A stretch of 64,000 nt of DNA. Origin: Trematomus loennbergii. Its lineage: Eukaryota; Chordata; Actinopteri; Perciformes; Nototheniidae. Where the stretch lies: NCBI GenBank assembly GCA_012861695.1, contig JAAOOA010000145.1, positions 565,001 to 629,000 on the forward strand, written 5' to 3'. The position numbers and the translations under genes were made by a program. Below the pieces are notes generated by a model that was not told where the DNA came from, did no database searches, and was given only the letters and a program-made list of their open reading frames with translations. Below are positions 59 through 44,300 of this stretch, one piece after another. How positions within the stretch are numbered: position 1 is the first letter of the stretch; every line of letters starts with the position of its first letter.

Positions 59-123
59 TGTGTGTGTGTGGTGTTTGTGTGGGTGTGTGTGTGTGTGTGT
101 GTGTGTGTTGTTGTGGTGTGTGT

Positions 124-209
<86 letters not shown>

Positions 210-225
210 GTGTGTGTGTGTGTGT

Positions 226-275
<50 letters not shown>
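1..275. repeat. (GT)n microsatellite
   Basis: Nearly pure GT dinucleotide tract with a few interruptions. It ends about 16 bases before the 3' splice site (AG at 291-292) of the first coding exon of NLR copy A. A matching tract sits at the same place before copy B, so the tract is an ancestral part of the gene and not a random microsatellite. Apparent Cys-Val or Thr-His reading frames across it are artefacts. Confidence 0.97.
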
Positions 276-278
<3 letters not shown>

Positions 279-302
279 GGTTTATCTCTCAGACTGAAGA
301 AG

Positions 303-420
303 ATGAGTGATTTAAAAGATGAGGAGGACAAATCTTCAGTCTCCAGCGGTCTGTCTCTGAAGAGTGACCGGTCTATGGGTTGGCTGTCTTCAGTAATGAA
401 CCTGGACCCTCAGACTCAAA
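303..420 (+). CDS. NLR copy A exon 1 (first coding exon)
   Basis: The 3' splice site is CTCTCAG ending at 292, the ATG is at 303-305, and the donor is AAA/GTAAGAG at 421. It encodes a short acidic peptide starting [15 protein letters not shown], followed by the [11 protein letters not shown] motif shared with the repeat exons. Compared with copy B, about 7 bases are missing near position 391, so the last third is read in the wrong frame and loses the NEPGPSDTK tail. ATG chosen because it matches copy B at 29257. Confidence 0.8.
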
Positions 421-3400
421 GTAAGAGTTTCTTGTTTCTTGTTTCTTGTCAGTTTGTTGGTATCTGATCATCTAAACTGTTTAATGAAACCCAGTAGAGA
501 ACATTAACAAAGTTGAATTGATCTCTGCTTCTTGTCATCATCAGAGACAGTAATAATCTACTAGTGAAATCATCCTCACACTCTACATGTTGGACTTTGT
601 GTTAAATGAAGCAAATAAAATACAAATATGTAAAACGTTTCACACTCGAATGAATTTGAACAACAGAAACCCACAATCACGACTCAACAACTCTAAACAT
701 CTTTAATAAGGTGAACAGTCATAGATCAACAGCTGCTCTTTAAATAAACTAATGATGTTTAAAACAGTGTTGTTTCCACAGACAGAGAGCAGAGTCTACG
801 GTCTCCATGTGGTCTCTGAAGAGTGACTGGTCTATGGGGAACCTCTATGGTTCAGTAATGAACCTGGACCCTCAGACACAAAGTAAGAGTTTCTCCTGTA
901 AACTGACCTGAAGAGGATCCAGTTTTTATGTAATCTAATATATTAAACTGTTCTTTAACCTGTTACGCACGGCCCCCCGGTACCTGGCGGATAAACGCGT
1001 AATTTGCAGGAAACAACGTCTAAGGAATCTTATATTTAATAAACTATGAATGTTTTATATCCATGTACGGGAAGAGTTTCTCCTGTAAACTGACCTGAAG
1101 AGGATCCAGTTTGTTGTATCTGATCATCTAAACTGTTTAATGAAACCCAGTAGAGTACATTAACAAAGTAGAATTGATCTCTTGCTTCTTGTCATCATCA
1201 GAGACAGTAAATAATCTACTAGTGAAATCCCTCACACTCTACATGTTGGACTTTGTGTTAAATGAAGCAAATAAAATACAAATATGTAAAACGTTTCACA
1301 CTCGAATGAATTTGAACAACAGAAACCCACAATCACGACTCACAACTCTAAACATCTTTCATAAGGTGAACAGTCATAGATCAAAAGCTGCTCTTTAAAT
1401 AAACTAATGATGTTTAAAACATGTGTTGTTTCCACAGACAGAGAGCAGAGTCTACGGTCTCCATGTGGTCTCTGAAGAGTGACTGGTCTATGGGGGAACC
1501 TCTATGGTTCAGTAATGAACCTGGACCCTCAGACACAAAGTAAGAGTTCTCCTGTAAACTGACCTGAAGAGGATCCAGTTTTTATGTAATCTAATATTTT
1601 AAACTGTTCTTTAACCTGTTACGCACGGCCCCCCCGGTACCGGGCGGATAAACGCGTAATTTGCAGGAAACAACGTCTAAGGAATCTTAATATTTAATAA
1701 ACTATGAATGTTTTATATCCATGTAACGGGAAGAAACTCAGCTAACTGATCTTTTTAATTTTTTTTCTCCAAAAAACCCCCACAATGCTAACACTCAAGC
1801 CTCTGAATTACCCACGAGCGAAAAAATGTAACCTAAAACGGCACTTAAACTCACAATAACTCCCTTATTACTTATCCTAGATGCACAGCCAACCACTCGT
1901 TTTGCATCAGCTGGAGACACAGAATCGTTTGGTGCCCACCTCAACACTCAGTGATAAACATTTGCGACGCTATAAACGAAAGCGTACATCATAACATGTT
2001 ACGCACGGCCCCCCCGGTACCTGGCGGATAAACGCGTAATTTGCAGGAAACAACGTCTAAGGAATCTTAATATTTAAAAAACTATGAATGTTTTATATCC
2101 ATGTAACGGGAAGAGTTTCTCCTGTAAACTGACCTGAAGAGGATCCAGTTTGTGGTATCTGATCATCTAAACTGTTTAATGAAACCCAGTAGAGTACATT
2201 AACAAAGTTGAATTGATCTCTTGCTTCTTGTCATCATCAGAGACAGTAAATAATCTACTAGTGAAATCATCCTCACACTCTACATGTTGGACTTTGTGTT
2301 AAATGAAGCAAATAAAATACAAATATGTAAAACGTTTCACACTCGAATGAATTTGAACAACAGAAACCCACAATCACGACTCAACAACTCTAAACATCTT
2401 TCATAAGGTGAACAGTCATAGATCAAAAGCTGCTCTTTAAATAAACTAATGATGTTTAAAACATGTGTTGTTTCCACAGACAGAGAGCAGAGTCTACGGT
2501 CTCCATGTGGTCTCTGAAGAGTGACTGGTCTATGGGGGAACCTCTATGGTTCAGTAATGAACCTGGACCCTCAGACACAAAGTAAGAGTTTCTCCTGTAA
2601 CTGACCTGAAGAGGATCCAGTTTTTATGTAATCTAATATATTAAACTGTTCTTTAACCTGTTACGCACGGCCCCCCCGGTACCTGGCGGATAAACGCGTA
2701 ATTTGCAGGAAACAACGTCTAAGGAATCTTAATATTTAATAAACTATGAATGTTTTATATCCATGTAACGGGAAGAGTTTCTCCTGTAAACTGACCTGAA
2801 GAGGATCCAGTTTGTTGGTATCTGATCATCTAAACTGTTTAATGAAACCCAGTAGAGTACATTAACAAAGTAGAATTGATCTCTTGCTTCTTGTCATCAT
2901 CAGAGACAGTAAATAATCTACTAGTGAAATCATCCTCACACTCTACATGTTGGACTTTGTGTTAAATGAAGCAAATAAAATACAAATATGTAAAACGTTT
3001 CACACTCGAATGAATTTGAACAACAGAAACCCACAATCACGACTCAACAACTCTAAACATCTTTCATAAGGTGAACAGTCATAGATCAAAAGCTGCTCTT
3101 TAAATAAACTAATGATGTTTAAAACATGTGTTGTTTCCACAGACAGAGAGCAGAGTCTACGGTCTCCATGTGGTCTCTGAAGAGTGACTGGTCTATGGGG
3201 GAACCTCTATGGTTCAGTAATGAACCTGGACCCTCAGACACAAAGTAAGAGTTTCTCCTGTAAACTGACCTGAAGAGGATCCAGTTTTTATGTAATCTAA
3301 TATATTAAACTGTTCTTTAACCTGTTACGCACGGCCCCCCCGGTACCGGGCGGATAAACGCGTAATTTGCAGGAAACAACGTCTAAGGAATCTTAATATT

Positions 3401-6400
3401 TAATAAACTATGAATGTTTTATATCCATGTAACGGGAAGAAACTCAGCTAACTGATCTTTTTAATTTTTTTTCTCCAAAAAACCCCACAATGCTAACACT
3501 CAAGCCTCTGAATTACCCACGAGCGAAAAAATGTAACCTAAAACGGCACTTAAACTCACAATAACTCCTTATTACTTATCCTAGATGCACAGCCAACCAC
3601 TCGTTTTGCATCAGCTGGAGACACAGAATCGTTTGGTGCCCACCTCAACACTCAGTGATAAACATTTGCGACGCTATAAACGAAAGCGTACATCATAACA
3701 TGTGGAGCTAGGTAGCTAGAAACGCTAACATGGCTTACCTTGGTCAGAACTGGTCTTCAATGGCATTAAAACGATAAAAAACGATGCTGAAGTTAATCCA
3801 TAGGTTAATCCAATGTGTCTGTGTCCTCTTTGAAATTATTTCTGATAATCCATAAGCAATAAAACTGCTTTTTCGTTTCCAAATGCCAGAGCGAGAGATC
3901 GCTTCACTCTGCTGCACATTTACATGCGCGCAGCCCCCACCTTTTCTCTTCACAACGTGTCTGTGTGGGGGCCTCCCCCTTCGATTCTATTGGCTCTAAC
4001 GGTCAGAAAGAGGTGTCAACCATCAAAATCGACCAAGGGGGGCCAGAGATATGGAAAAAAAACCCATTTTCACCCAAATCACCTCAGAGGTGGGGTGGTT
4101 TTGGCTAAACCTCTCTAAAAAGGTCAAATGTCACTTGTTTTGCATCAATCTTGATACAGGGTACTTATTATATGTTGTACTTTGGATTCCTAAAGCTTTT
4201 AGTCTACTAACCCATCATCCAAGGGTAGTTTTCACTATCTGTAAAAAATAATTTTTGGACGGACACTATCATTTACAGTTTTTTTACTATGTAAAATCTG
4301 AATTTTCTTTAAAATAAAAAACATCTATATTGATTCTGACACTTCTACATCCAACTCACAGATGTAACCTTGCTTTGATAAAAGAATTATTCATATAATC
4401 CTTTTAGAAGTTAACTTGTAGTCATTTGTTTTGAGCATGTCATTTTCGAGCCTGAAACATGAAAAACAGGCTTGGTGCTTAACAGGTTAAAGATATCATG
4501 TGAGCAGTTTGTAAAGGGAAAACGCAGCAGAGTACAGTAAGCTAACATTATCTAAGGATCAATATGCAATTATATTATCATTGTATCTGTGTATAAAATG
4601 GTTTTAAATAGCAACAATATTGATAAATACTGATTTAAAAACGATATATATTGTCCAAGACATTATTTAACCTGTTAAGCCCTGAGCCTGTTTTTCAGGT
4701 TTCAGGCTCGAAAATGCCACTAACACAACAAAGACTATATCTTCACTTCTAAAAGGGGTAAATTAATAATCTTTTTTCTCAAAGCAAGGTTACATCTGTG
4801 AGTTGGATGTAGAAGTGTCAGAATCAATATAGATGTTTTTATTTTAAAATAAATTCATATGGAACATAGTAAAAACATGTAAATTCAATCTTCGCCTAAA
4901 AAAAACCCATTACTTATAGTGAAAACCACCCTTGAATGATGGGTTAGTAGACTAAAGCTTTAGGAATCCAAACTATCACATATAATAAGTACCCTGTATC
5001 AAGATTGATGCAAAACAAGTGAAATTTGACCTTTTTAGAGAGGTTTAGAAAAATAAAGTCCAGGCGGACTCACCTCTGGGTAATTTGGGAACCATCAGTT
5101 CCATTTGACCTTTTTCACTGTAAAAATCATTTTTTACTTTGAATTATCACTATAGGTATTCATTCCATCCAAATACAACTGTTGTAAAAAAAACAAAAAA
5201 AAACATACTAAATGAAGTTTGACTCCAACTAGAGCAGATTTATTTAAAACTGCAGGGTGAGGCAGGTGTGGCAGGTGTGGCTGGTGTGGGCTGGGTGAAA
5301 GTAGGCAATGGTGAAGCCATTTCATCCTCATCTCCATCACTATGAAAACAAATGTGGAAAAACAAAGAGATTAGATTAATTCCTGTAATTCCTGTTTCCT
5401 TGGCAGTAAACATGCCATTTTGAGTGTGTGAATGCAATACATTTAGTGACTATAGATGAACACTGGCCAACCCTGTCTCCTAAAAATTACGTTCCCACAG
5501 AACTAAACTGCATTCTCAATTACGTTTAGCAAGAAACGTATTTTCTCCCACGTTGCGTTTGTTATGAACATCTTAATACGTTTATTTTCTACATATCTTC
5601 TAGAAACATATTTTCTCCCACGTTACGTTTGTTATGAACATCTTAAATACGTTTATTTTCTACATATCTTTGCCATTTTTTGTCTTGCTTATAATAATGA
5701 TAATAGTCATTTATAAATACCATTTGAGAGCACACATTTGAAATCGATGATCGGGCTCGATATATGGTTAAATTAAAATCAGTAGACGAGGCTGTAATTT
5801 CGCCAGCTGTTACTCTCATGAGCAAGGCAGAAAATAATAGTTTTATTATTTATTATTTACTATATGAATAATCGTACACCAAATAAATAAGTAATAGATA
5901 AAAACAGAGAGATTACATACCTTTCCCGTGGTGGAATTTCATCATCAGAGTCCGAGAATCAGAGTCCGAGAATCAGAGTCATCAACGCTCCGGGTTCCGT
6001 TCTGGCTGCAGGAGATCCTCGTCGTCTGACTCAGAATCAACGGGTAACATATCTGCATCGCTGTCAACATTAGTCACCATTTCCATTGCCTGTAAAGTCG
6101 TAAGCATCTCTTTCCTGCAAGCCATTATTTGACAAAAGTCAAAGTATAGAAAAAGTCCTAAACGCCAATCTTGTAATCTGCTCCGTTATCTGCTGTCCGC
6201 TCTGCGCTCTGGGTCCTGCTGCAATTCCTGTTGTTTACGTAGTAAACACGGCGTAGAGTCTGCTGCGTAATGGGTGTGCCGCTGGCATTCACAATTTATA
6301 CTTTACGCAGGACCATATCTATGGAACCCATTGGTCGATTTGAGTGATTTACACCTTTTTCTTAACCATTAGATCCAATAGAATCCGATGGGCAGTTCCC

Positions 6401-9400
6401 AAATCCACGTAAACATTTCCATTGCGGACGTAATATGGCGCGTTTCCACTACAGCGCGCAGCCCGGTTTAAGAGGGCTGTGACGTCAGCGGCCCGTTTGT
6501 GGTTGCGTTTCCACTTGGCCTAGTACCGGCCGGCGGGTCCTAATTCACAGTTTTTCTGGCCTAATAAAATCGTGGGGCTAGGGCCAGAGACAACCGGGCT
6601 GAGTTTGACGTCAACGCTCTCGGCTGCTGATTGGTCAGAGAATCGTCACAATCGGCGCGCGAGATAATCCCTAGCGTCGCATATATACAGCGATGCTTGC
6701 AGCATTTTTACAAACAGCATTTTTGTTAACAGAGGACTAAGAAGTTAACAATGGCAAAGAAAAGCACACCATGGTCGGTCGAGGAAGTGACGACGTTCCT
6801 CCATTACATTGCTGATGACAAGATCCAGCTGGAGCTCGACGGGACAACTCGAAATATTAAAGTATTTCAGGAGGTGTCTACACTGATGGCCACAAGCGGG
6901 TACTCAAGGACTGTCGTGCAGTGTAGGGAAAAACTGAAAAAGATGAAGGGTGAATATCGCTTGGTAAAGGACAATAACAACACCAGTGGTGCCAGTAGGA
7001 AAAACTGGAAGTGGTTTGACCTAAGGAACAGCATTTACGGCCATAGACCGGCTAGCGGAGGGAGGGAGGGAGGCCTGGACTCAGCAACAGCGTTACTGGA
7101 GTCTATAAATGGTAAGTTTTTGCTAACGCTCTGTTATTTTCTTGAAACCTTTGTGTCCCTATCTGTTCTAAAGCTCACTTCTAACAAATAAGTCTATTGT
7201 ATCCTTACATTTATGTTCGACAACCCATGCTTTTATGGAGCCCCGAAGGCTAGCTAGCTAGCTAAGGCAGATAGCATTAGCTAGAGCTAGTGTTTGCTAA
7301 CACCACATGTGCCATTGTTTACGTTCAGTTTGTCTTTTCTATAGTTGTTGTTGCTTTTTATAGTATTGTGCTGCAGTAGTTTGTGGGATTAACAAGTCAT
7401 GTTTCTGTTCTAGATGATTACGTTTTGAATTATTGCTAATTATTATTTATATAATTATCTTGTCACCCAGGCAAGAGGAGACGAGGAGGAGAGGAACTGG
7501 CCCTGCTGGAACGGCAACTGGCCCAGCAGAAGGAACACCAGGAGCAGAACCTGGCTGAGCAGAGGGAAGACCGGGCCCTGCAGAGGGAAGACCGGGCCCT
7601 GCAGGCTCAGTACATGAACCAGACCATGGTGGAGGCGAGGGAGGCGAGGGTGTTGGAAGCCGCCTTGAGAAGGGAGGAGATGGCTCACGCAGAGAGCTTT
7701 AATGCATCCTTCATGCGCACTATTTGCCAGGTGCTAGTGGGAACGGGCAGCCAACGTGCCCCGTCTCCTCCGCCTCTGTGATCCAATAACCTCTGGCTGA
7801 GATGATATAGTTTACCGTATTTACATTTGTACTTTCTTGTATATTTTTTATCTTTAAATGCAATACAATCATTTTTTTTTTATTGTACAATGCCATGCCT
7901 TTTTTATGCTGCTGCAAGAAACACTTTGTTTGTGTTAAATAAAGTACTTCTTTGACTTATCTTATTGCTTGTTGATAAATAATTGCACCCAACAGCGATC
8001 ACACAGAAAGATGGCATCATCTAGGCGTCCCTCTTCAGTCAGAAATATCATAAACACCATCATCGCCCACAAAGCACTGCACAGTGAAACCTTTATCATC
8101 TGTTGCAATTAAAGCAAATAAGAGAATAAATACTTGGTTAAATAAAACATTTTAAGTCTTTAGCAGGACAACTCTGCATACTGTTTGAAATTGAGTTTGC
8201 TCGCTTGAGGTCCTCTAAAATAACATTACATATTTTGTAATGGTATTAAGAATACATGATAAATAATACATTTAGTAAAAATTACTCAATTGTAATACCC
8301 TCGTTGTGCTAGACTCAAACACATTGCTTATATATTTAAAAGAGAAGAGAACAAAATAAACTATAACTACACTGTAGCTATGTTCGTATGACAAAATACA
8401 AAACCTTGAAGCTGAATATAGTTCTGCTGTGTTTTACACTGTTGTATTTATGTTTATAGTTTGCTTTGATATTTGCTTAGATTATTATTTTTATGGGGCA
8501 GTAAATACTGGTGCTTGAAATTCAAATATTTACTAAATAGTCAATTCTGATAACATTTCTTGGGTTTAAATAATTTGACAAACACATGTATGTGAAACAT
8601 TATTTTTTTATTTATGTTCAATACCATACAATGACTATTTATGTATTCAGGTAGCGCATCAGACCCTCTCGTATGTCCCTGCCCGCACCTTGTGCCACTG
8701 CTACCCCTGGCTCTGCTGCTGCTGGTGCATCCCACCCATCATCATAGGTCTCTCCATGACTCTCGCAGAGGTTATGCAGAGCACAGCATGTCAGCACCAT
8801 TGATTTAACAAGTTTCACATCACAGTCATTTCTTTTCATGAGGCAACGCCACCTTCCCTTCAGTCTACCAAAAGCGTTTTCAACCACTACCCGTACTCTG
8901 CAAATCTTCTTGTTGTATGTCACATGTTCTTCTGTTAGCCGTCCAGTGTCAGCGAAGGGTTTTATGAGCCAGTTTTGCAAGGGATAGGCATTGTCTCCCA
9001 GGATGTAATAGCCAGCATTCACCCCACCAATGTTCCTGGTGCAAGCTGGAAAGTAGTTGCCACGACTGGCCAACTCCCACAATGTGGACAGTCTCAAAAC
9101 CCGAGCGTCATGCAAGCTCCCAGGCATTCCTGCAAACACATTCCAGAAATGTCCCTTACCATCAACAACTCCTTGAAGGATGATGGAGTGCCAGCCTTTA
9201 CGGTTGAAATAGTCACAGTGGTATTCCTGTGGTGCCAAGATGGGTATGTGTGACCCATCAATAGCACCTACACACTGAGGGAGCCCCCACCTGCTCAGTG
9301 TAGGCAGCCATTTCTGCAAATTTCTCCCGGTCTGGTGAACGAATTAGTTCCGGTACTAACAACGTCTCTGCAGCAGCACAGAAGTCTTGCACACACCGGC

Positions 9401-12400
9401 ACACAGTTGTCTTGCTCACTCCGAAAAGATGTCCTATGCTTCTGTACTCAGCCGGTAGCAAGCTTCCACAGTGCGATGGCCACTCTCTTCTTAAAAGGTA
9501 TACACACGCGGAATGGTGTGTCCTGTCTCCATCGCTGGCCGCAGTTTGTTGCACAGGTAGACGTGGTTTCTTCAGACATCCTGAAGTTCTCCACCCACTG
9601 AGTGTGTGTGAAAGATGGAACAATCACATTCCACCACTCGGTAGCTCGGTCGAGCATCCAAACACATGGTCTAGGGCGGCGAAGTAACTTCTGAAATACA
9701 CAAACAAAAGCATACATATTTTAATACGTAAAAGTGGTAGCTACAATTAATTAAATACTTGAAATACTTTGGTCGTATGGGGAGCGTGAGCCTAAACACA
9801 TTGCTAGTTAGCGAACGTTAGCTTACCAAGTAGCATTGTAGTCTCGAAGAAGAAGTATAGTAGTAGTAGTTAGAGTCCTCCTGTAGTCTCTGCGGGCTGC
9901 CAGAACTCTCGCGTCAGCTGCCTCTATACCTCGTCTTGCTACAAGTCGCCTCTTTCGAATCATCTCTTGCCTATTTCTTGTGATAAAGAACCACACAGCA
10001 AGCAACAAGCAAACGATCTTTCAACATCCTCCATTGTTGTGTGTTTTTGTCGCATTGAAGATGACGTCACGGCAGTTTTAAGCAGCGTCGCTCCGCCTAC
10101 ACTGCGTTTCTATAGATCAGGGCTATTCAATTGGCGGCCCGCGGGCCAAATCCGGCCCCGGGGTGATATTTACTGGCCCTTTGAGTATAATGTTAAAAGT
10201 CATCAATTTTTTTTTTTAAAGATTTTTTTTTGTGCCATAGTGCCTTTATTCCAGAGTAGGTGTTACATTGAGAGATAGAGGGGTAGACAATGCCTGAAAA
10301 CTTCGACGGGCTCGGGTTTCGAACCCACCTACTATACTGTAGTGACAACTCATTCATTGATTGCATCTCTGCGTGAATGATTAGATAATTTCACCTAAAT
10401 TAAATCAAATGAAACATGTAGGCCTACTGAGTTCTGAACTTGCCATTTAGATCTATAAAGGCCTTGAGGCTATGTTGTTTGATTGAATTAAACACAATAT
10501 ATGCACTCCACTATGCTGTTGTAGTATTTACTGTATCTGAAGCTCTTAAATATGATTGCTCATATTTCAAGCCATCTTTTTCCCGGCCCCTTGCTTTGGA
10601 TCATTTTCATCAACCGGCCCCCATTCCAAACTAATTGAATAGCCCTGCTATAGATACTAACCCGGTTCCTAAACTTTAATGGAAACACGCCACAAAGTGA
10701 GCTGGTCCTAACGAGGCCGGGCGCGGCCAAAGGAGGCCGAGCGGGGCGGAGCGAGGCCGTGTAGTGGAAACGCGCCATAGAGAAGCAAACGAAGCATATC
10801 TGAAAGTACAAGCCTTGACTGCAAAACTTTATACCCAGTTTATTGCCATAAATATGATGATGGATTATCAGTAAAAAATTCTACGTGACAGAGACACATT
10901 GGATTAACCTTGAGCGGCGTTTTTATCCGTTGAACACAACTTTTGATCACAAATCAAAAAGGTGTAATTATTGTAATCTTTTTGAAACCGGATGTTGTTT
11001 ACTTTTCTTTTCTGGCTGAAAGCTCTGCAAATTCGGGGTCGTACAGTGATGACACTACATGTATGGAATCTGTGGAGTCTCAGCTTTAATCGGATATCTT
11101 GTTTGTGCAGTTACGATAAGTAATAAGGGATTTTGAGAGTGAGTGCTGTGCAAAACTCCGTTAGCATTAGTTAGCATTTTTTTGCAAAATGCTAATTCAA
11201 AGGCTTGGTATTACTCTGTGTTTCTTTTAGCTAAAAATGGTTCATATCTTCAGTTAGCTGAGATTCTTACCGTTAATCTGGTGCTACACATTAATAGTTT
11301 CATAAATGTTAAGAAGCCCTGAGACATTGTCTCAAAAAAAAAGTGGGAGGGGTCCAATGGGGGACCGCCGTGCTTAAGAGGTTAACTACTTGGGCATATC
11401 TATGATATGTCTTTTTAAGATGTTTATTAATAATAGTGATAACCAGGGGCCTCATTATGAAGGGATATACGCTCAAAAATGGCGTACGCCAGTTTCTACG
11501 CAATGTTTGCGATTTATAAAATACTAACTTGACGGGAAAATGTGCTGTCCTCCACGCAAACTCTAACCCATGCGTACGCACTAAGCACACAAACGGGAGA
11601 CAAGAAACTGCGACACCGTTGGCAGAAGGAAGAATGGAGAGAAATAGTGGAAATAATACCATAAATAAATGTTACCTCTCATTTATCAAATATGAAGAAT
11701 TCATTTTCAAACATTGATTAAAGCCAATCTTAAAATGATTAAACAAACGCCTGTTTGAGACTCCTCAGTGCACACAAAAACATAACTTGGAGAAATAAAT
11801 AAATACGGATATGCTATTTAAAACCACCTCGAATATGTTGTGTTAATGTTATGAAATGTTTTCTCATAAATGATGCGGTAAGCAGGAGGACAGAATAACA
11901 TCTAAACTGACGCCGTTTTGCATTTCTATAGGTTGTAGATACGAGCATGGTTTTTATATACTATCACGTTTAATCGTGTTTTATGCCGTTTGCCAAGACT
12001 TGATAAGTCGCTCGTAAACACAGGAGGTATGGAAACTAAGAACACCATATGTGGTCAATTGTAGGGATGCCAGAAACTGACCATGATCAATTCGAAAATC
12101 GACAGCCCTGGCGAATATTAATCGATTATTCGCCAACCCGCGCAGCAGCAGTCTGCACTCTGCGGCTTCCTCCAAGTTTACAAACTGGTGGTGTGACCAA
12201 TGGCCATTTACAATTATTAATACTATTACTATTATTAGCATTAGTCTATATTTTGGTTGAAACTAAGCCAGGAAAAAAAGAAAAACATAAATATAATAAA
12301 AAATATATAAATAAAATCGAATTTAAAAATAATTTTCGATTATGGAGACTGTAACGAATATTCGAAAATCGAATAATCGCTGGCATCCCTAGTAAATTGT

Positions 12401-15400
12401 ACAGCTAATATAACACAACACATTAGTTGTATTTCCTTTAACTGGTGGATTATGGATATATAGTTGCTGATCGACAGCTGGAACACAAACCACCAAATAC
12501 AACAAATAATTCAGATCCAGTCGTCATGACTCCACTCCGGAGGGATTCCCCCATCATTTCTTACAGTTTCTCATCAAGGGGGTCTCCTGTCCCCGGGACA
12601 AACACACTGCCTGAGGAAGGTTATGTGTATTTCTTTTGTCATTAACTTTTTTCGGACCACTTATTTATTTATTTTGGTGACGATCCGACCTCCATGCTGC
12701 TACTCTGGTTCAAACTGCATCCACCAAACAATATGATTTATCTCGACCTCCCACAATAACCAAAATCTGACACGGTGTGAGATGTCTTTTTTAGCTGTTC
12801 TGTCCTCATTTCCTGCGATCTTCTTCATGCAGTCAGTCAGAATGAATGAATGGGCGTTTCTTTGACTATTTATAGGCAAATATGGGCGTTACGAGTCGAT
12901 TGTGATTTATAAAGGGAAACAGGCGTAGGAGTGCCGTACGCACTTCCCTCGCCGGTACGCAATGTTTTGTGAATCGGAATTTCGGAAGATTTCTGTACCT
13001 ATTTTTTTGCTTTGTACTACGTAAGCACCTTCCCACGTCAATCCTACGCAAGGCGTTATAAATGAGGCCCCTGGTGAGCTGGTTGTTTAGCATTAGCAGA
13101 TAAAACAGTGTTTTGTGAAATCACATGTAGAGTCAATGCAAAGACCCAGATCCGTGCCTGGCAACACGAAGGAAGTGAAGATGTTAAATTCATATCACCT
13201 GCGTATTCGTGCAGCGTGACACATTTCAACTTGAGTGTAAAGTTTGTGACGCTCTGTTACAAAAACCTGTCAGTGTTGAGATTGTGCTCCTGGGTCTCTG
13301 ACGGTCTGAGGGGAATCAGAGAGGAGAACAGAGCTCTACAGCAGCTCATATTAATCAGGGTTATTCATGTTCCTGTATAAACCAGAGACTGTCTGTGGTG
13401 CTAACAATATAGTGACTGCTGTACTTATGACTTCATGAAGTTACTCTGAGTGTTGATGGAGCAGCTAATGTTAGCCTAGCTTTAATCAAACCCATCTCTT
13501 CAGAAAAAAACATTTAAAATGTTATGCTCGTTGTGTTGGAGACAGACCTGACAAAGCATTAACTCAGGCTTTTTACAAATCAGTATCATTCTGTTGTTAT
13601 TTAGGCATCCTTTCCATATGTTTATTTCTATGAATTCACAGCAGATTCTATGCAAGTTGGGTTTATAGTGTACCAGGTTAATACAGCTGTGTGTAGATAC
13701 AGGGAACATGTGCTCCTCTGGGTCATGAATCCAGACAGGATGCTCTCTGGTTTTATGATCATGTGAATGTAAGCTATCTACCTGATCACAAGGGTATATA
13801 TTATATAGACCTTTTTTTAAATATCAAACTAGAATGTGCCCCCTTGTTGTACCTTTGGTGAGAATCAGCCCTCTAAGTAAAGTGCTATAAAGGATGTGTT
13901 CATCTCCACAGAGGGAAGAGGAAGAGTGGTGTTCCTGTGGAGGAGCAGTGTCCAGCTGTGCTCTGTGTCAGGACGTCCTGAAGGATCCAGTCTCTACCAG
14001 CTGTGGACACTGGTTCTGCAGACAGTGCATCACCTCATACTGGGAGCAGCGCCTCCATCAGGAGACCCCTCCTGTCCCCAGTGTGGAGAAAGATCCAGAA
14101 CCAGAGCTGGCCTGCAGACAGCCAGTCAGACCAGCTCTGTACGAGGTAAGAGGCCGAACTCATGCAGCGTCTTATTCCTCTTCCTGGTTCATTTGTTTTT
14201 TTATTAGGTATTCTGTTGAAGAACATAGACATTAAATGTTTATAAACATTTAAACTCAGTCTGTTTTTATTAGTTTTATTGTTATATTCTCAAAAGCATT
14301 TCCTGATTCTCTCCTGTTTCCTTCTCTTCAGCAGATAGTGGTCTGCAGGAGGTTTTAGATGAACATAGGCTCAGTCTGAGGAGGAGATGTGAACGTGTGA
14401 CTGAAGGAACTGATCAAAGTGAAACCCTCCTCAACAGGATCTTCACTGAGCTCTACATCACACAAGGCCAGAGTGAAGAGGTTAATACCCAACATGAGGT
14501 GAGGCAGCTGGAGACAGCTTCCAAGAAAGAGACCCTCCATGACACTCCAATCAAGTGCCAGGACATCTTTAAAGCCTTACCTGACCAACAGACTCTCATC
14601 AGAGCGGTCCTGACCAACGGAGTCGCTGGAGTTGGAAAAACCTTCTCAGTGCAGAAGTTCACTCTGGACTGGGCCGAGGGTTTGGAAACCAAGATGTCAG
14701 TCTGGTGATCCCGCTCTCCTTCAGGGAGCTGAACCTGATCAAAGGTGAGCAGTACAGTCTTCTCAGGCTGCTCCATGTTTTCCATCCAACCTTACAGAAG
14801 GTCACAGCAGAGCAGCTGGCTGTCTGCAAAGTGCTGCTCATCTTTGACGGCCTGGATGAAAGCAGACTTTCTCTGGACTTCAGAAACAATGAGGTTGTGT
14901 CTGATGTCTCACAGCAGTCCTCAGTCAACGTGCTGCTGACAAACCTCATCAGGGGGAAGCTGCTTCCCTCGGCTCTCGTCTGGATAACTTCCAGACCTGC
15001 AGCGGCCAATCAGATCCCTCCTGAGTGTGTGGACAGGGTAACAGAAGTACGAGGCTTCACTGACGCCCAGAAGGAGGAGTACTTCAGGAGGAGATCGAGT
15101 GATGAAGACCTGTCCAGCAGAATCATCTCTCACATCAAGAGCTCCAGGAGCCTCCACATCATGTGTCTGATCCCAGTCTTCTGCTGGATCACTGCTGCAG
15201 TTCTGGACCACATGTTGACTACAGACCAGAGAGGAGAGCTGCCCCAGACCCTCACTGACATGTACTCACACTTCCTGCTGGTCCAGACCAAGAGGAAGAA
15301 GCAGAAGTATGAAGAGGGACATGAGACGAGTCCACAGCAGCTGACGGAGGCTGACAGGGAGTTCTTCTGAAGCTGGGGAGGCTGGCGTTTGAACATCTGG

Positions 15401-18400
15401 AGAAAGAACATCATGTTCTACCAAGAAGACCTGCAGCGCTGTGGTCTTGGTGTCACCGAGGCCTTGGTGCACTCAGGAGTTTGTACAGAGATCTTCAAAA
15501 GAGAGAGAGTGATCTTCAGAAAACAGTCTACTGCTTTGTTCATCTGAGCATTCAGGAGTTTCTGGCTGCAGTCTACATGTTCCACTGTTACACCAACAGA
15601 ACACAGAGGTACTGAAGGACTTCCTGAAGAGACTGGCTATGAGAACAGTAAAACAGTGATCAGGATTACCCATCCCTGGATGTCTTCCTAAAGGGAGCCA
15701 TGGCGAAATCCCTCAGAAGTGAAAATGGCCACCTGGACCTGTTTGTCCGCTTTCTCCACGGCCTCTCTCTGGAGTCCAACCAGAGACTGTTAGGAGGCCT
15801 GCTGGGTCGCACAGACAACCGTCAGAAATCATCCAGAGAGCCATCAGAGGCCAGCTGGGTCGCACAGACAACAGACCACATTCATCCAGAGACTCTTAGG
15901 AGGCCTGCTGGGTCGCACAGACAACAGTCCAGAAATCCAGAGAGCCATCAACAACCTGAAGAAGATGAACAGTGATAAATCTCTCCTGACAGGACATCAA
16001 CATCTTCCACTGTCTGACAGAGATGAAGGACCTCTCAGTACATCAGGAGATCACAGAGTTCCTGAAGTCAGAGAACAGATCAGAGAAACTCTCTGTGATC
16101 CACTGCTCTGCTCTGGCCTACATGCTGCAGATGTCAGAGGAGGTTCTGGATGAGTTGGACCTGAGAAGTACAAACATCAGCTGAGGGACGACGAGACTGA
16201 TTCCAGCTGTGAGGAACTGCAGGAAGGCCAAGTAAGTCCAGATGTGATTAACTTTATAAACTAATGTGGATCAGAAGTTTAATTATTCAAATAAACACTA
16301 TAACATTTCTGCTGTTTAAATACTGAGAGCAAAATAAACCAACACTGTTCTTCTATTTATTTATAATAATAGTTAAACTGAAGCGTTTCTCTCTTCATAT
16401 TGAGTGATGGAGGCGACATGTCAAACACATGAAGGACTTAGAGGTTTCTCAGCATGTGATCACACCACACAGCAGGACTTACAGTTATCAGTTATTATTA
16501 CTTTCTAGTAGTTTCTTTATCATTAAACACACACACGTTTTTATCACAATGTTTAGAGTTTAAAATCAGATCTATATCATATCCCACCAATACCAGAGTT
16601 ATGTCTTAACCTGTTAAGCCCCGAGCTTGTTTTTCAGGTTTCAGGCTCGAAAATGACATGCCCAAACAAATGACTACAACTTCACTTCTAAAAGGGTTAT
16701 ATGAATAATTTATTTTATCAAAGCAAGGTTAATCTGTGAGTTGGATGTAGAAGTGTCAGAATCAATATAGATTTTTCCCAGTCAGAGTAAATTCAGATGG
16801 AACATGGTAAAATTCTTACCTGCGCCTAAGAAAAAACATTACTTATAGTGAAAACCACCCTTGAATGATGGGTTAGTAGACTAAAAGCTTAGGAATCCAA
16901 AGTATAACATATAATAAGTACCCTGTATCAAGATTGAGGCAAAACAAGTTAAATTTGACTTTTTAGAGAGGTTTAGCAAAACAAAGTTCCAGGCGGAATA
17001 AGCTTTCGGCACATTTGGGTACATCTGGTTCCATCAGTGCCATTTGACCTTTTTCAGGTACCAGACTATAAAAATGATGTATTACATTGAATTATCACCA
17101 TAGTTTTTCATTCCATCCAAAGAAAAAAAAAAAATAAAAAATTAAAGAATAAAAAAAAAAATGTGGTTTGTTACTGTGTTTGTGTTACATTTCCAGATGC
17201 TCAGAGAAGCCAAAACATCCATCATTCACATATTAATTAACATTTAAATATGTACATCTCTAATATTGTCGTGATTTATTTAATTTCTGTTTCTTTGGTA
17301 ACAGTCAGTGACAGCAGGAGCACAGACATGTGATCAGATCGCACTGACAACACATTACACTCTATTATCATATATTATTATATATAAAATGGACTAACAG
17401 CAAATCTCAATCAGAACATATGTCAAATATTTTTTTCATCAAATGCTTGAGGTCATTATGTTTCCTCTTTTTTAACACATGTTGTAATATATGTGTTATT
17501 ATAGACTTGCCGGCTGTGGACTCTCAGAGACTCAGTGTGAAGTCGTGGCCTCAGCTCTGAGTCTGACCCTCCCATCTGAGAGATCTGGACCTGGGTGAGA
17601 ACCTGAAGGATTCAGGAGTGGAGCTGCTGATCTCTGGACTAAAGAGTCCAAACTGCAGACTGGAGGCTCTCAGGTCAGTTCACTGACTGAACTTCATCTG
17701 TTTGTGTTTATCATTTTCTGAATTTGAAAAAAATACATTAAAATTATTTATCCATTTTTGCTAATGACTGAATATTGATCAGAATAACAAAGAGAAGGTG
17801 AATGTGTGAGGGAGAGTGTTTGAGCTTCCACAGACTCACTCTGTGCTCCATGAGTCAGTGGAGATGCTGTCAGTACTGATGAGCTGTGAGGGAGATGAAG
17901 GAGTTGTTAAACATCTGATCAAAGTTAAGTTCCGATTATCAGTGGATTGTTCTACATCATCTCTGAGATTAAAGGTCTCCTATCATGCAAAAGTCACTTC
18001 CTGATGTCTTCTCTACATCACCATGTGTCCCGGTGTCAGGAGACTCACAAAGTGTCAGGAAACAAACCCCTCTCTCTTTTCCTCCGTACCCACATCTCTA
18101 AAAACGGGGCAACAACGGAGCTGATCCAGATTTGCTGCGTCATGACGGCATTACTAAATTGTGGGCGGGCTTTACACCACGGGCCAATCAGAAACGTTGC
18201 TGTCGGAACAATGGACGTGTTCTGGAAGTAATATGGTCTGTGTTTACATTAGCATGCTAACACTCAGAGCTAACCTGTACTGGAGAGAGCATGTGTGAAG
18301 AAGCAGGAAATAAAAGGAACTCACCTTGTGGTAAACCTGAGAGAGAGAAAGAGTTTGAGCTCCATACTGTTTCAGAGATAATCCTTGATGTGGTTTGGAA

Positions 18401-29256: not shown

Positions 29257-29384
29257 ATGAGTGATTTTAAAGATGAGGAAGAGGACAAATCTTCAGTCTC
29301 CAGCTGTCTGTCTCTGAAGAGTGACCGGTCTATGGGTTGGCTTCCTCCAGTCTTCAGTAATGAACCTGGACCCTCAGACACAAA
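29257..29384 (+). CDS. NLR copy B exon 1
   Basis: ATG at 29257 ten bases after the CTCTCAG acceptor. Reads [20 protein letters not shown], then [20 protein letters not shown], and ends at AAA/GTAAGAG. Intact, and used as reference to show the 7-base loss in copy A. The acidic start and the [17 protein letters not shown] motif are typical of N-terminal segments of fish NLR-C proteins. Confidence 0.87.
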
Positions 29385-32300
29385 GTAAGAGTTTCTCCTG
29401 TAAACTGACCTGAAGAGGATCCAGTTTGTTGGTATCTGATAATCTAAACTGTTTAATGAAACCCAGTAGAGTACATTAACAAAGTTTAATTGATCTCTTG
29501 CTTCTTGTCATCATCAGAGATAGTAAATAATCTACTAGTGAAATCATCCTCACACTCTACATGTTGGACTTTGTGTTAAATTACGCAAATAAATACAAAT
29601 ATGTAAAACGTTTCTCACTCGAATGAATTTGAACAACAGAAACCCACAATCACGACTCAACAACTCTAAACATTTTTAATAAGGTGAACAGTCATAGATC
29701 AAAAGCTGCTCTTTAAATAAACTAATGATGTTTAAAACATGTGTTGTTTCCACAGACAGAGCAGGGTCTACGGTCTCCATGTGGTCTCTGAAGAGTGACC
29801 GGTCTATGTGGGAACCTCTATGGTTCAGTAATGAACCTGGACCCTCAGACACAAAGTAAGAGTCTCTCCTGTAAACTGACCTGAAGAGGATCCAGTTTTG
29901 ATGTAATCTAATATATTAAACTGTTCTTTAATGATATCATGTGAGCAGTTTGTAAAGGGAAAACGCAGCAGAGTAAGCTAACATTATCTAAGAATATTTC
30001 AATATGCAATTATATTATCATTGTATCTGTGTATAAAATGGTTTTAAATAGCAAGAATATTGATAAATACTGATTTAAAAACTATATATATAGTCCAAAA
30101 CATTATTTAACTACTTGGGCATATCTATGATATGTCTTTTTAAGATGTTTATTAATAATAGTGATAACCTGGTGAGCTGGTTGTGTTTAGCATTAGCAGA
30201 TAAAACAGTGTTTTGTGAAATCACATGTACAGTCAATGCAAAGACCCAGATCCGTGCCTGGCAACACGAAGGAAGTGAAGATGTTAAATTCATATCACCT
30301 GTGTATTCGTGCAGCGTGACACATTTCAACTTGAGTGTAAAGTTTGTGACGCTCTGTTACAAAAACCTGTCAGTGTTGAGATTGTGCTCCTGTGGTCTCT
30401 GACGTCTGAGGGGAATCAGAGAGGAGAACAGAGCTCTACAGCAGCTCATATTAAATCAGGGTTATTAATGTTCCTGTATAAACCAGAGACTGTCTGTGGT
30501 GCTAACAATATAGTGACTGCTGTACTTATGACTTCATGAAGTTACTCTGAGGGCTGATGGAGCAGCTAATGTTAACCTAGCTTTCATCAAACCCATCTCT
30601 TCAGAAAAAAACATTTAAAAAAATGTTATGCCCGTTGTGTTGGAGCAGACCTGACAAAGCATTAACTCAGGCTTTTTACAAATCAGTATCATTCTGTTGT
30701 TTTATTTAGGCATCCTTTCCATATGTTTATTTCTATGAATTCACATCAGATTCTATGCAAGCTGGGTTTATTGTACCAGGTTAATACAGCTGTGTGTGTA
30801 GATACAGGGAACATGTTATGAAGGTAGATATGGTGCAAAATGCGAGAGCGTGTAAAACCTGATGTGAGCACTTGCAGAAAAGAAATCTGAGCTTGTGTGC
30901 ATACATTTACACTTGTATAAAATATCCACGTATCTGTGAACCAAATTTGAAGTCACAGAAGAAAAAAAAGTTTTGTAGCTTGTAGAAAAAAATGAACTTC
31001 GTGATGAAATGTTCACTTGCAGAAAAAATATATTTTTTAAATATATTTTCCATTACAACTGCAACTTGGTTATTACAACCTCTCAAATCAGTCATTACAA
31101 CTTCACGAATCTGCTCTGTGGCAGTATAATCCACGAATCTGCGGCCTTGACTTTGCTACACTTCTTGCGATGAATGTGTCGCAAAAGTAATTTTCACCTG
31201 TAGATGTGGGGGAGGGAGGGGGGTTGGAGCGAAGGGGCGGAGCTATCACAACGACGAGGCTCGGGTCAGTCACACAGTCACAGCCATAGTCAGGTCGAAC
31301 CAGATGACTGCGGGGCTAACGGTCCGTGTCGCTACCAGTCCGCTGACATGGCGCGTCAATCAACGGTAAGTTTTGCCCATTACTTCCCCAGTATTACTTT
31401 GAATATTATTATTGTGATTGAGGATTAAATCCGCTATGAAGACCACCGTTTTATATCGTGCAGTTTAGCGGCAAAATAACGTCAGTTAGCCAGCTAACGC
31501 TAGCTTTGTTGAATTTATGCTAGCTAAACAAGTAGTGGTTGTAGTCTATACAGCAGTAATTAATATATTATAGCCTACTGCTTTGGCACTAACGGTTGAT
31601 AACCGTTTATGAAAATAAAACCAATTGAACTGTACTGAAATAATGACAAGTTTTATAATTGTCTTGGGCTCCTGCTGTGTTTTTAAAGCCTTTGTAAATT
31701 ATCCATGCTATTTTCTATTTAGAACGAAGACTTCAGAATCTTAAAATCCCTTGACGTTTGTATGCAATTGTGCTAAATTCAACACTGGAATCAAGCAAAT
31801 ATGAATATGTTTGCATGACATTAGTTATTTATATTTTGCCATCACTTAATTATACGTTTAATACATTTAAGTCAAACTAAGGTACATGTGATGGTAGCTA
31901 GTTAGTACTCTTACCTGTGAGGCCTCCTCCAAACAGCATTATAACCAGACTGTACATTAAAACTAGAAGTACCAGTTCTAGATCCTTGACTTTAGACAAA
32001 CAATTCAAAAGACAAAATGTATTTAAAGACCAATCTTTATTTGAAGGTGCCTCTTAACCTGAGATATTAGTTATACAGTAATAGTATTGACAATCTAAAA
32101 AAACTGAGCAACTCAACGGTTCACTTTTATATTTCTTATTGTCTAAAGCATTTATTATTTTCATTTTCCCCTCTCATATTCAGTGTGGACGGATTGAGAC
32201 AGCGTGGTGTCCAGAGAGCTGCAGAGACTTCAGGGAGAAACCTCCGTGTGATGGACGTCCTGTCTGTTGGTTTGGAGAGGACTGAGGGTCTTTCCTCAGC

Positions 32301-41300: not shown

Positions 41301-44300
41301 GTTAAAAGACATGGTTATGAAAATGGATTCAACCCACACTATGATCTTCATTACATACACAGTTAATCATTTGAAATCTAATTTAGACCGATGACAATCA
41401 TATTAGATTCATATTAACCCTAGAACTACAGACAATATAGCTAGGACCCAGTCAAACAGTCTGTTCAAAAAGGCAGAATTCCAGGTAAGAAAATCATATA
41501 TGGCATTTGCCATTACACATATTTAATTTAAATGTCTGTTAACACTAGAACCGCCAACAGCATCAGCACCTACATAGATATCATTTTCAAATCATTTAAT
41601 TTGTTCCTCTTCATAATTTCCTTATAAACTAAAAGTAGGACGATTTAAAACTCACTTAATTGGGTTAATTTAGAAATTGCTTCAGTTTATCATCATAACA
41701 GATCAAAAAGTTCAGATTCATTTTTACAATAAATCAAGGAATGATGCACTTCTACAAACAAAAACAACATAATTAAAACATTTAAACAAACTACTAAAAG
41801 TAGATGAACTACATTATTCAACAGTTTACAGTAACTTCTGATAATAACACAGGGAAAATAAACGAGGCATCTATTTTCCTCCTCTCTCTCTCTCTCTCTC
41901 TCTCCCTCTCCTGACAGCCCGTCAGTATCGGGGTTAGTCAAAATGAATCCCTTGGAGGTTCTAGTGTTCATTTACCGTTTTGTCTTCTCTTTGCAATGCT
42001 TAATCGATTTGAAACCAAGTCTAACGTAGCTTAAACTTAACGTTAGCTTTCTAGCTAACACAACACATTCACGCACCTTTCTCTGTGGGGTTTTTTGTAG
42101 TGACGAATGAAGTTGGATGTTTTGGTGGTCGTGTCACTGATCTTTATGATGCAGACCCTGCATACCGCTGTTCTCTTCTTATTAGCGTCATCGACAACAT
42201 AATCCTTGAATCCAAACTTCACTATTTGTGGAGTAACGCTAGCCGCTCCATGTTAACTGACACTCCTGCCGTCTAGTGGGTTGCCAGGTTTGCGCGCACG
42301 GCGCTATAATCACCCAATCACGTTTTTCGAAAAAACTAAACGTAATATCTCACTACAAAAACAAACGCAAATATTTAATTTTAAAGTCAAGTCCTTTCAA
42401 GTCATCTGTCTCAAGCTTAAGTCAAGTCTCAAGTCATGAATACCAAGTCAAAGTCAAGTCAAGTCTTTTATCAATGTTAGTCAAGCAAGTCTCAAGTCAA
42501 AAAATATGGGACTCGAGTCTGACTCGAGTCAAGTCATGTGACTCGAGTCCCCACCTCTGGCATGAAGACACGGACCGTTAGCCCCACAGTCATCCGGTTG
42601 GACCTGACTATGGCTGTGACTGTGTGACTGACCCGAGCCTCGTCGTTCTGATAGCTCCGCCCCTTTGCTCCAACCCCCTCCCTCCCCCCACATCTACAGG
42701 TGAAAATTATTTTTGCGACACATTCATCGCAAGAAGTGTAGCAAAAGTCAAGGCCGCAGATTTGTCGATTTATACTGCCACAGAGCAGATTTGTGACGTT
42801 GTAATGACTGATTTGAGAGGTTGTAATAACCAAGTTGCAGTTGTAATGGAAAATATATTTAAAAAATAAGTTCATTTTTTTTCTACAAGCTACAAAACTT
42901 TTTTTTTTCTTCTGTGACTTCAAATGTGGTTCAGAGATACGTGGATATTTTATGAATGTGCCCCCTTGTTGTACCTTTGGTGAGAATCAGCCCCTCTGAA
43001 GTAAAGTGCTGTAAAGGATGTGTTTCATCTCCACAGAGGGAGGAGGAAGAGTCGTGTTCTTGTGGAGGAGCTCCTGTTCTGAAGTCTTTACACTGGCTTC
43101 CTGTGTGTCAAATAATAGATTTCAAAAATATTGTTGCTGGTTTATAAAGCACTGAATGGTTTAGGCCCTAAATACATTTCTGATCTACTGCTAAATTATT
43201 AACCATCCAGATCTCTCAGGTCTTCAGGGACTGGTCAGCTTTCTGTCCCCAGAGTCAGAACCAAACATGGTAAAGCAGCGTTCAGTTATTATGCTCCAAA
43301 TATCTGGAACAAACTCCCAGAAACCTGCAGGTCCACTGCAACTCTGACTACTTTTAAATCAGGCTGAAGACTTATCTTTTTGCCGCTGCTTTTAATTGAA
43401 CTATTCATATCTTAAACTTAACTTTTTACTGTTTACTTTTTATTCATGTATTTTTTCTTTTAATGTTTATTTTATTATCTTTTCTTTTTAATGACTGTTT
43501 TTAATGCCTTTGTCTGAATGTCTTTCATTTTTGTAAAGCACCTTGAATTGCCTTGTGTTGAAAGGTGCTATATAAATACACTTGCCTTGCCTTGCCTTCC
43601 AGCTGTGCTCTGTGTCAGGACGTCCTGAAGGATCCAGTCTCTACCAGCTGTGGACACTGGTTCTGCAGACAGTGCATCACCTCATACTGGGAGCAGAGAC
43701 CTCCATCAGGAGACCCCTCCTGTCCCCAGTGTGGAGAAAGATCCAGAACCAGAGCTGGCCTGCAGACAGCCAGTCAGAACAGAACTGTACGAGGTAAGAG
43801 GCCGAACTCATGCAGCGTCTTATTCCTCTTCCTGGTTCATTTGTTTTTTTTATTAGGTATTCTGTTGAAGAACATAGACATTAAAATGTTTAAAAACATT
43901 TAAACTCAGTCTGTTTTTATTAGTTTTATTGTTATATTCTCAAAAGCATTTTCTTATTCTCTCCTGTTTCCTTCTCTTCCAGCAGATAGTGGTCTGCAGG
44001 AGGTTTTAGATGAACATAGGCTCAGTCTGAGGAGGAGATGTGAACGTGTGATTGAAGGAACTGATGAAAGTGAAACCCTCCTCAACAGGATCTTCACTGA
44101 GCTCTACATCACACAAGGCCAGAGTGAAGAGGTTAATACCCAACATGAGGTGAGGCAGCTGGAGACAACTTCCAAGAAAGAGAGCCTCCATGACACTCCA
44201 ATCAAGTGCCAGGACATCTTTAAAGCCTTACCTGACCAACAGACTCTCATCAGAGCGGTCCTGACCAACGGAGTCGCTGGAGTTGGAAAAACCTTCTCAG

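What the first reader, a model, noticed from the sequence alone, without database searches (positions are those of the whole stretch)
421..4486. N-terminal exon array of an NLR grown by transposon-anchored tandem duplication
Copy A has four repeat exons and copy B one. Each extra unit carries the truncated 5' end of the piggyBac-type element that sits whole at 3321, joined to the post-donor intron through shared AAGAG. A second internal joint uses TGT (about 1997). So the element came first, then the exon was multiplied using breakpoints within it. Since the exon is 102 bases, each step changes receptor length in frame. It shows a concrete way for fish NLR N-termini to diversify.
Basis: seen in the sequence. 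Interest (0 to 1): 0.75.

Follow-up and report, generated by a model that had tools for sequence, protein, structure and literature searches.

The report
Stepwise exon array in fish immune-receptor gene
In a fish immune-receptor gene, one small exon was copied up to four times by DNA errors whose joints lie partly inside a jumping gene in the next intron, and other copies in the same genome still show the earlier stages, so the order of events can be read directly.

Summary
Window 421-4486 is the 5' part of an NLRC3-like (RING-FISNA-NACHT) gene whose 102-nt, phase-symmetric N-terminal repeat exon is present four times; copy B has one. A 1166-bp TTAA-flanked piggyBac-like element is whole only after exon 4. 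Units are joined by one repeated joint (element ~120 to intron +3, AAGA) and one unique joint (element ~383 to element 3, TGT). The same genome holds the stages: no element, one exon (copy B; 16 of 16 loci fetched, of 32 listed); element, one exon (C145:438.9 kb); two units, joint 1 only (C670); four units, both joints (window). The exact joint-1 17-mer was found only in the window and on C670. So element first, founder duplication second, further gain third is well supported. Corrections: only one of the two founder breakpoints lies in the element; the downstream intron is about 74% inserted DNA, so the element may be a passenger; the window copy's frame is broken as assembled, while the two-unit sister is open over exon 0 and both repeats. 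Variable repeat number is known in fish NLRs; seven literature searches showed no report of this mechanism in the listings seen.

The parts
303..420 (+). exon 0 (start codon plus first repeat motif); 7-nt deletion against copy B and C670 breaks the frame as assembled
421..781 (+). intron after exon 0 (I0); its +3 onward is the right side of joint 1; its first ~30 nt differ here and in C670 from copy B at 29387, which matches the joint
782..882 (+). repeat exon copy 1 (101 nt, lacks one G of a G5 run)
959..1075 (+). truncated element 5' end, unit 1, ending in joint 1 (AAGA)
1438..1539 (+). repeat exon copy 2 (102 nt)
1615..1999 (+). element positions 1-383, unit 2
1997..1999 (+). joint 2, shared TGT, element ~383 to element position 3; not found elsewhere as a joint
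1997..2114 (+). truncated element 5' end (positions 3-120) ending in joint 1
2480..2581 (+). repeat exon copy 3 (102 nt)
2657..2776 (+). truncated element 5' end, unit 3, ending in joint 1
3143..3244 (+). repeat exon copy 4 (102 nt)
3321..4486 (+). whole 1166-bp piggyBac-like element, TTAA on both sides; no reading frame of 110 aa or more listed in it
4671..11385 (.). second, ~6.7-kb TTAA-flanked insertion with similar ends, inverted; carries Harbinger-type DDE and Myb/SANT reading frames; empty in copy B
13891..15370 (+). RING, FISNA and NACHT reading frames of copy A
29257..29935 (+). copy B exon 0, intron, single repeat exon and empty TTAA site

Best explanation
A short piggyBac-like element inserted at a TTAA in the intron after the single N-terminal repeat exon of an NLRC3-like gene (shown). 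A tandem duplication of about 664 bp then joined element position ~120 to position +3 of the intron after exon 0 through 4 bp of shared sequence, giving two repeat exons, each with its own acceptor and donor (structure shown; microhomology-mediated or replication-based repair inferred). In the window lineage homologous unequal exchange added a unit, and a second short-homology exchange (TGT) between the element of a last unit and the element fragment of a first unit added a larger one, giving four (order inferred from linked variants). The exon is 102 nt and phase-symmetric, so each step adds or removes about 34 residues of the receptor N-terminus where the frame is intact. The element is most simply the place where breaks fell and the extra homology between units, not the agent.
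For: Units, joints and linked variants. Exact empty site in copy B. Element absent at the site and one repeat exon at 16 of 16 fetched loci, out of 32 other exon-only places listed; all of these matches stop at query base 177, the last base before the element; the exact empty-site string was matched in 8 of the 16. Element and second insertion at the same sites with one repeat exon at C145:438.9 kb. Two units with joint 1 only on C670, open through exon 0 and both repeats. Joint-1 17-mer at 4 places in the assembly; joint-2 16-mer at 2, the other being an element 5' end next to TTAA with its second base changed. The element is a dispersed family: 31 of the 40 places scored span all 1166 positions; 10 of 10 fetched full-length copies have TTAA on both sides and read ACCGGG near position 28, while the three truncated window copies read ACCTGG, so these descend from one truncated copy in the window lineage. 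Chance of at least 4 bp shared at a random joint of type 1 is 0.023, and of at least 3 bp at type 2 is 0.057.
Against: The microhomologies are short and each alone is only mildly unlikely. The order of the last two gains rests on two substitutions (element site ~28 and one A/T site in I0). One-base indels outnumber substitutions in several pairs of units, so the assembly probably keeps errors and the unit count could be off. No reads, transcripts or other individuals were available.
Confidence: 0.85

Rival explanations
1. The transposase took part: an aborted excision left a cut element end that was joined wrongly, giving joint 2 (3 bp from the element's 5' terminus), and perhaps joint 1.
For: Joint 2 starts at element positions 3-5, very near the cut site. 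The element belongs to a dispersed family; the 38 scored copies other than the window's and C670's are 90-97% identical to it.
Against: Joint 1 lies ~120 bp inside the element and at an intron position with no element. No piggyBac transposase domain was found in 12 of the 30 reading frames listed for the related 6.7-kb insertion. Excision of this superfamily is usually precise (recalled).
Confidence: 0.08
2. The four-unit array is an assembly product (mis-joined or falsely expanded reads of a two-unit locus).
For: Residual one-base indels are common; this is a repetitive gene cluster; the 5,000 bases just upstream of the window read as N, which may be a gap or a withheld stretch.
Against: Joint 2 is a specific novel sequence present once; units carry their own substitutions; the whole array is only about 3 kb; joint 1 is independently present on another contig, C670.
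Confidence: 0.06
3. The array is a non-functional relic: copy A is a pseudogene, so exon number has no effect on a receptor.
For: As assembled, exon 0 has a 7-nt deletion and exon 1 lacks one G, giving a stop in exon 1; the NACHT frame of A is also shifted against B.
Against: Copy B's NACHT frame breaks too, and 9 substitutions against 5 internal one-base indels in 1259 aligned bases look like base-calling errors. The C670 two-unit sister is open across exon 0 and both repeats.
Confidence: 0.35

Closest known systems
N-terminal ~30-residue peptide repeats of fish NLR (NLR-B30.2 / NLR-C) proteins: Howe et al. 2016 (PMC4852459, passages seen) and the 2024 zebrafish NLR copy-number paper (PMC11192531, passages seen)
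   Same: Same gene-family features (FISNA, NACHT) and repeats of a ~30-residue motif that vary in number among genes
   Different: The passages I saw report variable number and exon shuffling between genes; they give no joint sequences. [quoted passage not shown] Here the joints and intermediate stages are visible
Tandem exon duplication with breakpoints in intronic repeats, then homologous unequal exchange (general mechanism, recalled)
   Same: Short shared sequence at the first joint; longer homology between copies afterwards; exon number changes in whole units
   Different: First joint is element to unique intron, not element to element; a DNA transposon, not a retroelement such as Alu
piggyBac-superfamily non-autonomous elements (traits recalled)
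   Same: TTAA on both sides, CC... termini, short inverted ends, dispersed copies
   Different: No transposase found for it here; family name in a repeat library not checked

Membership tests
Fish-specific NLR (NLRC3-like / NLR-C) | FISNA domain before NACHT | tested here: met
   PF14484 E 1.1e-27 and PF05729 E 5.8e-21 in copy A; both also in copy B
Fish-specific NLR (NLRC3-like / NLR-C) | N-terminal ~30-35-residue repeat motif | tested here: met
   Residues 1-77 of a composite query matched 929 of 972 candidate proteins at E up to 10 (120 listed). Of 8 read in full, 7 are named NLRC3-like and one is a hypothetical protein with FISNA and NACHT
Fish-specific NLR (NLRC3-like / NLR-C) | C-terminal leucine-rich repeats or B30.2 in this copy | not tested
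   Downstream exons were not assembled
piggyBac superfamily element | TTAA target duplication | tested here: met
   Window copy plus empty site in B; 10 of 10 fetched full-length copies (L043 and L044 share flanks and are not independent)
piggyBac superfamily element | Short terminal inverted repeats starting CC | tested here: met
   CCTGTTACGCAC at one end, CCTGTTAAGCAC inverted at the other
piggyBac superfamily element | Related autonomous copy with a piggyBac transposase | tested here: inconclusive
   No piggyBac Pfam match in 12 of the 30 reading frames listed for the related 6.7-kb insertion; a Harbinger-type DDE is there instead
Microhomology-mediated tandem duplication | A few shared bases at the joint and no inserted bases | tested here: met
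   AAGA and TGT, no extra bases
Array evolving by unequal exchange | Different unit numbers at sister loci with the same joint | tested here: met
   Four units in the window, two on C670, same joint 1

The most novel reading that the evidence does not exclude
C670 and the window are two alleles in one fish, so the number of N-terminal repeat exons (two against four) segregates in the population, and the element-laden intron makes this gene family a standing source of receptor-length variation from no extra repeat exon (C145:462.7 kb) to four.
Probability: 0.3. Interest if true: 0.62.

Novelty: new member of a known kind. Interest (0 to 1): 0.48.

Why it matters
Fish NLRs were known to carry variable numbers of N-terminal peptide repeats, and transposable elements were suspected of helping NLR exons spread. 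Here one genome preserves the empty site, the insertion, the two-unit founder and the four-unit array, with base-level joints. That makes exon-number change in these receptors directly testable in populations: joint 1 and joint 2 are simple PCR or k-mer markers.

Tried and rejected
Searches for other uses of the joints: the exact joint-1 17-mer was found nowhere except the window and C670. The joint-2 16-mer is also at C133:500590, but that is an element 5' end next to TTAA with one changed base (161 bases seen). Rejected: AAGAG as shared sequence (it is AAGA). Rejected: the idea that breakpoints in the element by themselves show a role for it, since 3245-13890 is about 74% inserted DNA (both insertions counted whole, the right end taken at the RING reading frame, not at a mapped splice site). 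A first pairwise comparison of units placed gaps badly and inflated some counts (10 substitutions between units 2 and 3); I used the repeat instead. A first reading of the copy A frame began one base late and a first reading of C670 there missed the start codon; replace them. Allele against paralogue for C670: it follows the window from 115 to 16,609 with some stretches missing (0.33-0.63% substitutions over 115-10,117; 0.5-2.7% from there to 16,609), then about 0.8-3.5% with large insertions, and the C670 upstream sequence gave no match to C145:555,001-560,000 at the thresholds used; unresolved. Pfam on 12 of 30 listed reading frames of the 6.7-kb insertion gave no piggyBac transposase. Literature searches (listings seen) gave no paper on this mechanism in fish NLRs; the library lacks most subscription journals. 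A genome search with the exon alone did not complete, so other multi-unit arrays in the genome may exist.

Full report
What is there. The window (C145:565001-629000 of an unnamed 1.2-Gb genome) holds two NLR gene copies. Copy A has RING, FISNA and NACHT frames at 13891-15370; copy B has RING at 43562 and FISNA-NACHT at 43904 onward. Upstream of these are short exons for an N-terminal repeat motif. In a protein search scored on 77 residues of that motif, 929 of 972 candidates matched at E up to 10. The 120 listed include many NLRC3-like proteins of notothenioids and other fishes, the highest listed identity being 88% to a Trematomus bernacchii protein. A rough motif split gave 0 to 9 repeat units in those 120, and 22 of the 85 with at least two units had neighbouring identical units. 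These are the best-scoring 120 of 929 and include isoforms, so this is only an indication that such arrays exist elsewhere.

The array. The repeat exon is 102 nt, phase 2 on both sides, at 782-882 (101 nt), 1438-1539, 2480-2581 and 3143-3244; copy B has one at 29756-29855. The last copy is followed by a whole 1166-bp element at 3321-4486 between two TTAA. Copy B shows the uninterrupted site CTGTTCTTTAATGATATC. Units 1 and 3 carry element positions 1-120; unit 2 carries 1-383 followed directly by 3-120.

The joints. Joint 1 occurs three times and is the same each time: element up to GGGAAGA, then the intron after exon 0 from its position +3 (AAGAGTTTCTCC). The shared letters are AAGA. The matching source of the right side is seen in copy B at 29387; in copy A and C670 the start of that intron reads as a TTTCTTG repeat instead. 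Joint 2 occurs once, sharing TGT between element position ~383 and element position 3. For random joints of these kinds the chance of at least that much shared sequence was 0.023 and 0.057.

Stages in the same genome. A search with exon, intron start and element gave 46 matches. Besides copy B, 32 of them are exon-and-intron matches that stop at query base 177, the last base before the element. I fetched 16 of those 32 (L013-L028). The stages are: (i) element absent at the site and one repeat exon at copy B and at 16 of 16 fetched loci, the exact empty-site string being matched in 8 of the 16, and no exon 0 being found in the fetched stretch for three of them (L013, L014, L019); (ii) element, and the second insertion (about 2.2 kb there), at the same two sites with one repeat exon at C145:438.9 kb (L011; its repeat exon is a 105-nt variant); (iii) two units with joint 1 and no joint 2 on C670 (L009); (iv) four units with both joints in the window. 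A further copy at C145:462.7 kb (L045) has the element at this site with no extra repeat exon: its first exon runs straight into the post-exon intron, and by eye the 3' half of that exon resembles the repeat exon of L011, as expected for a loss by unequal exchange. The exact joint-1 17-mer is present at four places in the assembly, three in the window and one on C670, with one match for the reversed control. The joint-2 16-mer is present at two, with none for the control: the window, and an element 5' end on C133 with one changed base.

The element. It is a dispersed family: of the 40 places scored, 31 span all 1166 positions. The 10 full-length copies fetched have TTAA on both sides, 10 of 10, and read ACCGGG near position 28, 10 of 10 (two of them share flanks). 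Both C670 copies read ACCGGG too. The window's full element and unit 2's long fragment read ACCGGG, but its three 120-bp fragments read ACCTGG. So those three descend from one truncated copy that changed after the split from C670. An A/T site in the repeated intron (AAGTTG in C670's joined intron and before exon 3, AAGTAG before exons 2 and 4) travels with the long or whole element. The simplest history is: two units; a homologous gain to three; then a short-homology exchange between a two-unit and a three-unit version (or a duplication to five and loss of one). This order is inferred from two sites.

Age. Units 2, 3 and 4 differ by 1 to 3 substitutions in 507-511 aligned bases; each of the four units differs from copy B by 13 or 14 in 502-507. 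C670 and the window differ by 0.33-0.63% substitutions over window 115-10,117, besides many small gaps.

Only one of the two founder breakpoints is in the element. The stretch from 3245 to 13890 is about 74% inserted DNA by my count, so a break inside an insertion is what chance would give. As assembled the window copy is not open: exon 0 lacks 7 nt relative to copy B and C670, exon 1 lacks one G, and a stop follows in exon 1. One-base indels are frequent between near-identical copies, and the NACHT stretch compared between A and B has 9 substitutions and 5 internal one-base indels in 1259 aligned bases, besides gaps at its ends. That suggests residual sequencing error, but the 7-nt deletion is not of that kind. 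The C670 two-unit copy is open across exon 0 and both repeats. Of two acceptors tried for copy B's repeat exon, only the one 4 nt further on keeps the frame.

Known background. Howe et al. 2016 (PMC4852459, passages seen) describe several repeats of a ~30-residue motif in the N-terminal extensions of zebrafish NLR groups 2 to 4 and infer exon shuffling. [quoted passage not shown] My searches (listings seen) showed no description of joints like these in fish NLRs.

Verdict. The order element, founder duplication, further gain is strongly supported by independent loci. That the element causes the process, and that exon number matters to a working receptor from this copy, is not shown.

Noticed in passing
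window 4671-11385: A ~6.7-kb TTAA-flanked insertion with ends like the small element but inverted; carries Harbinger-type DDE (8639-9343, minus) and Myb/SANT (6730-7191, plus) frames. At the same site in C145:438.9 kb (L011 6430-8608) the insertion is only about 2.2 kb, so a Harbinger element may be nested in a piggyBac-like one; empty in copy B.
   Followed up: partly
L011 about 4116-4858: The intron after exon 0 in this sister copy holds its own insertion of about 750 bp that begins and ends next to TTTAA / TTAAA; L020-L023 and L028 also have extra sequence in that intron, so these introns collect insertions.
   Followed up: no
L045 1-265 (C145:462.7 kb): An NLR first exon whose 3' half looks like a repeat exon and runs straight into the post-exon intron and element: an apparent loss of the repeat exon by exchange within exons.
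   Followed up: partly
window 421-450 and C670: The start of the intron after exon 0 reads as three TTTCTTG units right beside the position where joint 1 begins, in both the window and C670 copies.
   Followed up: no
window 14340-15600 against 43990-45260: NACHT stretches of A and B differ by 0.7% in substitutions while the repeat units differ by about 2.6%, as if the NACHT exon were homogenised or constrained.
   Followed up: no
G000:C145:560001-565000: Exactly 5,000 N directly upstream of the window (gap or withheld), so the promoter side of copy A could not be read.
   Followed up: no
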